Below, in pieces: positions 59,632 through 61,312 of a stretch of 64,000 nucleotides of DNA. Below the pieces are notes generated by a model. That model was not told where the DNA came from. It saw only the letters and a list, made by a program, of their open reading frames with translations, and searched no databases. The stretch's first letter is position 1. The number at the start of each line of letters is the position of its first letter. The position numbers were made by a program, and so were the translations under genes. The stretch is from Ostreibacterium oceani (GTDB taxonomy: Bacteria > Pseudomonadota > Gammaproteobacteria > Cardiobacteriales > Ostreibacteriaceae): positions 87,191 through 151,190 of the forward strand of contig NZ_WHNW01000007.1 of NCBI RefSeq assembly GCF_009362845.1. The letters are read 5' to 3'.

Positions 59632-60957
59632 TCACTGCACAGTACAACCAAGGTTGTATTCATTGGCTAATTTGACCAATTGAAATGCCACTTGACCATC
59701 CTTGCCATCTAATGTCATTGTTGCTCGATTGCAGCCATGAAACTGTAGCGTCATCGTGCCCCAAACTTCGATTCCTGGTGGACTAGATGGCGCGGTTGAA
59801 AAGTCCGCACCATTACCCAAAAAGCCCTGATATACAGTGAATGTATAAACCGCGTCTTTGACGATACGTGCATCGCTTAATTGACCATTTAGTTCTGCCA
59901 TCAACCATTGCGCCTGCCCATCTCCTGTGCCTTTGTAACCATAATAGTACGCTAGCAAACGATTGGCATCGGGGCGAATAATATTAATCCCGAGGCCACT
60001 ATAAACAGGATCATACCACGCGCCAGATACAGCGGACAACGCTGCTACACTCGTGTTGGTAACAAACTGCGCACCTGATGCGTGCTGCAAAATAAACGAT
60101 TCATACGATGCAACGTCTGTGTACCCACTAGGATTACCCGATGCACAGCCACCCACGAGAAAACTCGCAATCCCTGCTTGCACATTGATACCGTTTTGTT
60201 TGATGTACAAAGGCGCGCCCGTATCGCCATAGCAAATATCTTTCGCCTGTGTATCACCAGCGCACAGGGTTGGCGGTGAATCATAGCCAAAAAGCGTTTG
60301 GCATTGCGCGTAATCGACTATCGGCAAATCCACCATCTGCAATGTGCGCGGATTCGTAATCGATAAAGGTGATACCGACGTACTTCCCATTCCTGCGACA
60401 GTGGCGATACGACTCGCCAATACATCGCCTGACCCATTAAGTACGGCATTAGGATAATTATGCGGCGTGGCAAGTTTTAGTAGTGCGATATCGTTAAATG
60501 TTGAACTCGATGTTGTGCGGTTGTAGTTTGGATGCACAACAATCTGTGAGACCGCCATTCGGTCATCGGCCACCAGCCGATTTGCCACAAAGCCTTGTGG
60601 ATTTGGATTAACGTTCACGCGACTGGCATCCACTGGTGTATGGCTTGGATTGTTACTGACGCAGTGCGCTGAAGTCATCACCCACTCCTTATCTATAAAC
60701 GCACCACCGCAAATACCGGTCGATGTGGGGCCTTGTGCCACAGATATCACAACAAACGATGGGTAGGCCGCGGCAAGGCTATCTTCGCCGCCGACAATTG
60801 CATGGGCAGTATTGACCACCAAGCTTAAACCAACGCTCAAAACCAGCCTAAAGCCAGAGTAAAAATCCAAGTTAAAACAATTAATTAAATACTTACCTAA
60901 ACCCTTATCTAAACGAGCGATCCCTAATAAAATTGACTGGTTGTTCATCTTTGCCAT
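59632..60957 (-). CDS. secreted trypsin-fold (S1) protein with Thr in the catalytic Ser position
   Basis: The start at ATG 60957, after the ribosome binding site AAGGAGA, gives 441 residues. A signal peptide ends at TAHA, directly followed by IVGGED, the mature S1 N-terminus. His of TSAHC (about H98) and Asp of FNDIALL (about D156) are in place. The usual GDSGGP is GDTGAP (T246, codon at 60220-60222), so Ser195 is Thr and Gly197 is Ala. The Asp six residues before (DICYGDT) is the trypsin S1-pocket Asp. The C-terminal ~130 residues (SGAWYDPVYSGLGINII) form a domain seen in other proteobacterial secreted proteins. Possibly inactive, or a slow Thr nucleophile. Confidence 0.85.
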   Translation of the reverse strand: MAKMNNQSILLGIARLDKGLGKYLINCFNLDFYSGFRLVLSVGLSLVVNTAHAIVGGEDSLAAAYPSFVVISVAQGPTSTGICGGAFIDKEWVMTSAHCVSNNPSHTPVDASRVNVNPNPQGFVANRLVADDRMAVSQIVVHPNYNRTTSSSTFNDIALLKLATPHNYPNAVLNGSGDVLASRIATVAGMGSTSVSPLSITNPRTLQMVDLPIVDYAQCQTLFGYDSPPTLCAGDTQAKDICYGDTGAPLYIKQNGINVQAGIASFLVGGCASGNPSGYTDVASYESFILQHASGAQFVTNTSVAALSAVSGAWYDPVYSGLGINIIRPDANRLLAYYYGYKGTGDGQAQWLMAELNGQLSDARIVKDAVYTFTVYQGFLGNGADFSTAPSSPPGIEVWGTMTLQFHGCNRATMTLDGKDGQVAFQLVKLANEYNLGCTVQ

Positions 60958-61312
60958 AACGTCTCCTTGATTGTTAGTTAGTTGCACATTCATCGCCAGA
61001 TTGCTTGCGGCAGCAGAATTGCAATGTAAATGCTCATACTTTTATGTTGCCCTTATGTTGCCCTTATGTTGCCCTTATGTTGCCCTTATGTTGCCCTTAT
61101 GCTGCCCTTATGCTGCGCTTGTATTATCCACTCTATCACAATGGCGCGCTTGATGCATCGTTTTGATAGCACTTTACACCGTTAAAACCGCTATGGCGAC
61201 TTTGGTTTTGCAGGTTGAACATTGATTTTGCGTTGCTTGTGAATATTTTTGTGAATATAAATAATGCTTTAAAATACCCAGCAAGTTGTCCTAAAGTTGG
61301 GGTGTAAGCTCA
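60958..61312. other. region upstream of the protease gene
   Basis: About 355 bp. It contains the 11-bp repeat array at 61042-61118 and otherwise no supported gene or RNA. The protease ribosome binding site is at about 60963-60968 on the minus strand. No clear promoter was identified. Confidence 0.4.
61042..61118. repeat. seven 11-bp tandem repeats
   Basis: The unit TTATGTTGCCC occurs from 61042; the first five copies are perfect and the last two have T to C changes (TTATGCTGC). The spacing of 11 bp is close to one helical turn. It lies about 85 bp upstream of the protease start codon on the minus strand. Confidence 0.92.

What the first reader, a model, noticed from the sequence alone, without database searches (positions are those of the whole stretch)
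59632..60957. Trypsin-fold protein with catalytic Ser replaced by Thr (GDTGAP)
The His and Asp of the triad, the S1-pocket Asp and the IVGG mature N-terminus are all kept, while the nucleophile is Thr (ACG at 60220-60222) and the following Gly is Ala. The rest of the gene is intact, with signal peptide and an additional C-terminal domain. Ser-to-Thr usually abolishes or strongly slows S1 activity, so this may be a pseudo-enzyme (binding, decoy or adhesive role) or a rare Thr protease.
Basis: partly seen in the sequence, partly recalled or inferred. Interest (0 to 1): 0.6.

Follow-up and report, generated by a model that had tools for sequence, protein, structure and literature searches.

The report
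Secreted trypsin look-alike, threonine replaces serine
A bacterium carries two related secreted trypsin-type proteins; this copy has lost the usual active-site serine, part of its substrate groove and its activation segment, so it is most likely an inactive or barely active relative that binds rather than cuts, a kind already known mainly from animals.

Summary
The gene is on the minus strand (59632-60957, ATG with a good Shine-Dalgarno). It has the trypsin (S1A) fold with H110, D168 and D252 kept, and Thr258 (ACG, 60220-60222) at the nucleophile position. All 35 homologues compared, and the 42%-identical paralogue in the same genome, have Ser. In 398 genomes of the phylum the D189...GDxG(G/A)P motif matched 26 Ser sites and one Thr site, this one; the other 12 hits were chance.

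Gly216 (substrate groove) is lost. Residue 190 is Ile. The propeptide is gone: IVGG directly follows a signal-peptidase site (AHA|IVGG), while 23 of 27 homologues carry Arg/Lys there. The 'Ala' is at position 197, not directly after the Thr, and is minor. The Cys42-Cys58 bond, whose removal partly rescues S195T thrombin, is kept.

Best reading: a duplicated, secreted, constitutively folded S1 pseudoprotease, or at most a very slow enzyme. It carries an unnamed lineage-expanded C-terminal module. Thr195 S1 homologues are already known (TSP50; cestode Ag5), so this is a new bacterial member of a known kind. No orthologue was found, so conservation of Thr could not be tested.

The parts
59632..60957 (-). 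Coding sequence of the trypsin-like protein (441 aa from ATG 60957; an in-frame ATG at 60993 would give 453 aa)
   Evidence: ORF list and SD AAGGAG 5 nt upstream of ATG 60957
60963..60968 (-). Shine-Dalgarno sequence AAGGAG
   Evidence: sequence read directly
60799..60957 (-). Export signal with a long n-region, hydrophobic core LVLSVGLSLVV and AHA|IVGG signal-peptidase I-like site; no propeptide
   Evidence: hydropathy; N-termini of homologues; cleavage site inferred by the -3,-1 rule
60091..60798 (-). S1A (trypsin-fold) domain, residues 66-301
   Evidence: Pfam PF00089 E 2.1e-35; PDB sequence match to elastase 1 E 3e-23
60220..60222 (-). Thr258 (ACG) in place of catalytic Ser195
60664..60666 (-). 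His110 (His57), kept
60490..60492 (-). Asp168 (Asp102), kept
60238..60240 (-). Asp252 (Asp189), kept; next residue Ile (190), Ser in the paralogue
60157..60159 (-). Leu279 where Gly216 is expected (substituted or deleted, depending on the alignment)
   Evidence: 33 of 34 homologues have Gly; aligned as a gap against the paralogue
59635..60036 (-). C-terminal ~130-aa module, unnamed; 8 full or nearly full copies in this genome including this one
   Evidence: no Pfam or PDB match; copies in G000 and G036
61042..61120 (.). Array of 7.2 copies of 11-bp TTATGTTGCCC upstream of the gene
   Evidence: TRF score 137, the highest in the window; only place in the genome; role unknown

Best explanation
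A secreted S1A pseudoprotease, the diverged duplicate of a normal-looking trypsin encoded elsewhere in the same genome. Steps inferred: it is exported, signal peptidase cuts AHA|IVGG and directly frees the Ile16-type N-terminus, which pairs with Asp194 so the domain folds in its mature shape without an activating protease. Thr195 is hindered (Cys42-Cys58 kept) and the S1/S3 groove is altered (Ile190, no Gly216), so peptide bonds are cut very slowly or not at all. The protein then acts through binding, by the dead protease face and/or the C-terminal module, for example on a protein of the host or the matrix, or by sequestering inhibitors or substrates of its active paralogue. Shown: fold, substitutions, paralogue, loss of the propeptide, module copies. 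Inferred: inactivity, cleavage site, binding role.
For: 35 of 35 homologues have Ser195. All four departures of this protein from columns conserved in at least 90% of homologues fall in the catalytic cleft (positions 55, 195, 197, 216), while every scaffold column, including the three disulphide pairs, is kept. The paralogue's departures spare position 195 and lie elsewhere, apart from a loop alignment at 216. The paralogue has GDSGGP and a long propeptide ending in Lys|IVNG. IVGG is preceded by AHA and no basic residue, unlike 23 of 27 homologues. S195T strongly lowers activity of thrombin and trypsin, and removing Cys42-Cys58 only partly corrects it (PMC8695361); here both Cys are kept. The ORF is intact over a branch of 1.14 changes per site, and 4% of its single-base changes would create stops, so the protein was under selection for most of that time.
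Against: His57, Asp102, Asp189, Gly193, Asp194 and Ser214 are intact, which a long-dead enzyme need not keep. Thr still offers a hydroxyl, and TSP50 with Thr is reported to be active (PMC3344824). No orthologue was found, so conservation of the Thr state is untested. No activity or binding data exist.
Confidence: 0.62

Rival explanations
1. A slow but genuine Thr-nucleophile S1 protease, as claimed for TSP50, perhaps with an unusual substrate accommodated by the changed groove.
For: The rest of the triad, the oxyanion Gly and Asp189 are kept; TSP50 T310A is described as protease-dead, implying a working Thr (PMC3344824); echinococcal/Taenia Ag5 is reported to have marginal activity (PMC5931690).
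Against: S195T is greatly impaired in thrombin and trypsin (PMC8695361); the Cys42-Cys58 bond is not lost; Gly216 is lost and position 190 is Ile, which would hinder substrate binding too.
Confidence: 0.2
2. A recently inactivated gene on its way to loss: catalysis was lost a short time ago and nothing has replaced it.
For: The paralogue may supply the activity; the rest of the triad is intact; no orthologue is known.
Against: Several independent cleft changes plus a new propeptide-free N-terminus need time; ORF, Shine-Dalgarno and C-terminal module are intact.
Confidence: 0.13
3. Sequencing or assembly error at one base (TCG read as ACG).
For: One base separates TCG (Ser) and ACG (Thr); no reads are available (one search shows the codon only).
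Against: The other cleft departures and the missing propeptide are independent of this base.
Confidence: 0.04

Closest known systems
TSP50/PRSS50 (human testes-specific protease 50)
   Same: S1 domain with His and Asp kept and Thr in place of Ser (PMC3344824)
   Different: Animal protein reported to have Thr-dependent activity; 26-36% identical to serine proteases; no such C-terminal module
Antigen 5 (Ag5) of Echinococcus and Taenia
   Same: Secreted trypsin-like protein with catalytic Ser replaced by Thr and only marginal activity (PMC5931690)
   Different: Cestode protein of another architecture
Paralogue in the same genome (L001, G000:C1:38310-39464)
   Same: 42% identical over the S1 domain and the same C-terminal module
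   Different: GDSGGP, Ser190, Gly216 (SFG) and a long propeptide with a Lys|IVNG activation site; expected to be active
Engineered S195T thrombin and trypsin
   Same: The same Ser-to-Thr change in the trypsin fold (PMC8695361)
   Different: Laboratory mutants; otherwise wild-type clefts

Membership tests
Peptidase family S1A (chymotrypsin/trypsin fold) | Trypsin-domain homology over the full length | tested here: met
   PF00089 positions 1-220/220, E 2.1e-35; PDB elastase E 3e-23
Peptidase family S1A (chymotrypsin/trypsin fold) | Three core disulphide Cys pairs and the IVGG N-terminus | tested here: met
   C95, C111, C231, C244, C254, C283 and I66VGG
Active S1A serine protease | His-Asp-Ser triad | tested here: not met
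   Ser195 is Thr258; His and Asp kept
Active S1A serine protease | Zymogen propeptide with a basic activation site | tested here: not met
   AHA|IVGG; 23 of 27 homologues have Arg/Lys. Not universal in the family
Active S1A serine protease | Gly216 in the substrate groove | tested here: not met
   Leu or gap; Gly in 33 of 34 homologues
Thr-type S1 homologues (TSP50, Ag5) | Thr at 195 with His57 and Asp102 kept | tested here: met
Thr-type S1 homologues (TSP50, Ag5) | Common descent with TSP50 or Ag5 (as opposed to parallel change) | not tested
   Nearest relative found is the Ser paralogue of the same genome; grouping support weak
Thr-dependent protease | Catalysis lost on changing the Thr | not testable with these tools
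   needs an enzyme assay
Conserved pseudoprotease clade | Thr conserved in orthologues | tested here: inconclusive
   No orthologue in 57 relatives, 369 class genomes, plasmids, phages or viral contigs

The most novel reading that the evidence does not exclude
A natural bacterial trypsin-fold protease that uses Thr as nucleophile, made constitutively mature by signal peptidase without a zymogen stage, with a reshaped substrate groove that accommodates the Thr methyl group.
Probability: 0.1. Interest if true: 0.75.

Novelty: new member of a known kind. Interest (0 to 1): 0.36.

Why it matters
[quoted passage not shown] A natural bacterial Thr195 protein with a Ser paralogue in the same cell is a tractable pair for deciding whether nature uses Thr in this fold or only tolerates it in non-enzymes. 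It would also be a bacterial case of S1 pseudoprotease evolution, with loss of the activation step alongside loss of the nucleophile.

Tried and rejected
Orthologues with Thr were sought in 57 relatives, 369 genomes of the class, genome contigs, plasmids, phages and viral contigs: none found. The plasmid hits were not read residue by residue. The 12 matches in the phylum scan with other residues at 195 were read in frame and are not trypsins, so they are not extra pseudoproteases. An AlphaFold model from five sequences had mean pLDDT 53.5 and was not used. The tree pairs the window protein with its paralogue only weakly (support 42/94), so a lineage-specific duplication rests mostly on the shared C-terminal module. 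The C-terminal module gave no usable family or structure match. Organism not identified: a Cardiobacteriales such as Ostreibacterium is only a guess from genome sizes and kinship groups. Searching papers for GDTGGP gave none.

Full report
What is there. The gene lies on the minus strand. Pfam finds one trypsin domain, residues 66-301, full model, E = 2.1e-35, and the nearest solved chains are pancreatic elastases and coagulation proteases. The catalytic His (H110) and Asp (D168), the S1-pocket Asp (D252), the six cysteines of the three core disulphides and IVGG are present. The nucleophile position reads GDTGAP with T258 = ACG at 60220-60222. The Gly directly after the Thr is kept; the Ala stands at chymotrypsin position 197, which also varies in other homologues, so it is of little weight.

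Is it unusual? I aligned the S1 domains found in relatives of the class and in genome contigs. Ser195 is invariant in 35 of 35 distinct homologues and in the paralogue. A DNA pattern for Asp189-x-Cys-x-Gly-Asp-Thr-Gly-Gly/Ala-Pro hit only this gene in 369 genomes of the class. The same pattern with any codon at 195, in 398 genomes of the phylum, gave 26 Ser, one Thr (this gene) and 12 others; the 12 were read in frame and are not trypsins. Two further samples (4 genomes, 250 genomes) gave only Ser among sites with a residue other than stop. The Thr is therefore a real rarity in this sample. These patterns cover only trypsins with Asp189 and Gly/Ala at 197 in Proteobacteria; other phyla were not sampled.

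What else has changed. Of the columns conserved in at least 90% of homologues, the protein departs at four: positions 55 (Ala to Ser), 195, 197 and 216. All four are in or beside the catalytic cleft by chymotrypsin numbering (established knowledge of the fold). Gly216, which holds the substrate backbone, is replaced or deleted; position 190, Ser in the paralogue, is Ile. One distant homologue (L055) also has Leu at 216 but keeps Ser195. IVGG follows directly on AHA at the end of a hydrophobic stretch. By the -3,-1 rule (inference) signal peptidase I would cut there and free the Ile16-type N-terminus at once. Of 27 homologues with a recognisable N-terminus, 23 have Arg or Lys just before it, after a propeptide. 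The paralogue has a long propeptide ending in Lys|IVNG. So the activation step has gone together with the nucleophile. A trypsin made mature at the moment of export would be dangerous to the cell if active; an inactive one is harmless (inference).

Origin. The same genome (2.18 Mb) holds one other trypsin with the same layout, 42% identical over residues 65-452, with GDSGGP, and a DegP/HtrA-like protease. A lineage-specific duplication is likely, from the shared C-terminal module, but the tree of the S1 domain supports the pair only weakly (42/94). The ORF is intact although its branch is 1.14 changes per site and 159 of 3,969 single-base changes would make a stop; the protein was selected for most of its history. 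No orthologue was found, so whether the Thr state itself is conserved could not be tested.

Mechanism. From the literature: S195T greatly compromises thrombin and trypsin; the Thr methyl group clashes with incoming substrate and its Ogamma is less mobile; removal of the Cys42-Cys58 bond corrects part of the deficit (PMC8695361). This protein keeps both cysteines and adds changes in the S1 and S3 sites. The best reading is a pseudoprotease, or an enzyme so slow that its role is binding. The C-terminal module occurs in 8 full or nearly full copies in this genome, including this one, on several probably exported proteins and in pairs, and in at least 13 in one other genome of 143 searched. It matches no Pfam family or solved structure. 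It may carry the binding or surface-attachment role (inference).

Known or new. Thr195 homologues of S1 are known: human TSP50, reported as a Thr protease with a protease-dead T310A variant (PMC3344824), and Ag5 of Echinococcus and Taenia, with marginal activity (PMC5931690). The finding is thus a new, bacterial member of a known kind. It is of moderate interest because the same genome supplies the natural Ser control, and because a 2021 paper states that no trypsin-family protease with an active-site Thr is documented (PMC8695361).

Noticed in passing
window 59635-60036 (-); G000 C1, C2, C4, C5, C14; G036: An unnamed ~130-aa C-terminal module (SGxWYDp..SGxGF...Y.YGY...W...WG...F..C...C) with no Pfam or PDB match, expanded to 8 full or nearly full copies here and at least 13 in one other genome, absent from the other 141 class genomes searched.
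   Followed up: partly
window 61042-61120: 7.2 copies of the 11-bp unit TTATGTTGCCC, the strongest tandem array of the window and found nowhere else in the genome, 85 bp upstream of the start codon; copy-number variation might tune expression.
   Followed up: partly
G000:C2:12041-12873 (L012, L019) versus G000:C5:4274-5107 (L017): Two near-duplicate genes with repeated 'ADGRYVAF..DNLVAGDTN' segments and two tail modules; the C5 copy is one open 736-aa frame, the C2 copy is interrupted at the first module.
   Followed up: no
L055 (G286): A homologue with Ser195 but Ser at 189 and SFL at 214-216, showing that loss of Gly216 also occurs in a Ser-type relative.
   Followed up: no
window, whole: TRF gives 53 rows of short tandem arrays in 64 kb, many with periods of 10-16 bp, which suggests a genome rich in minisatellites.
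   Followed up: no
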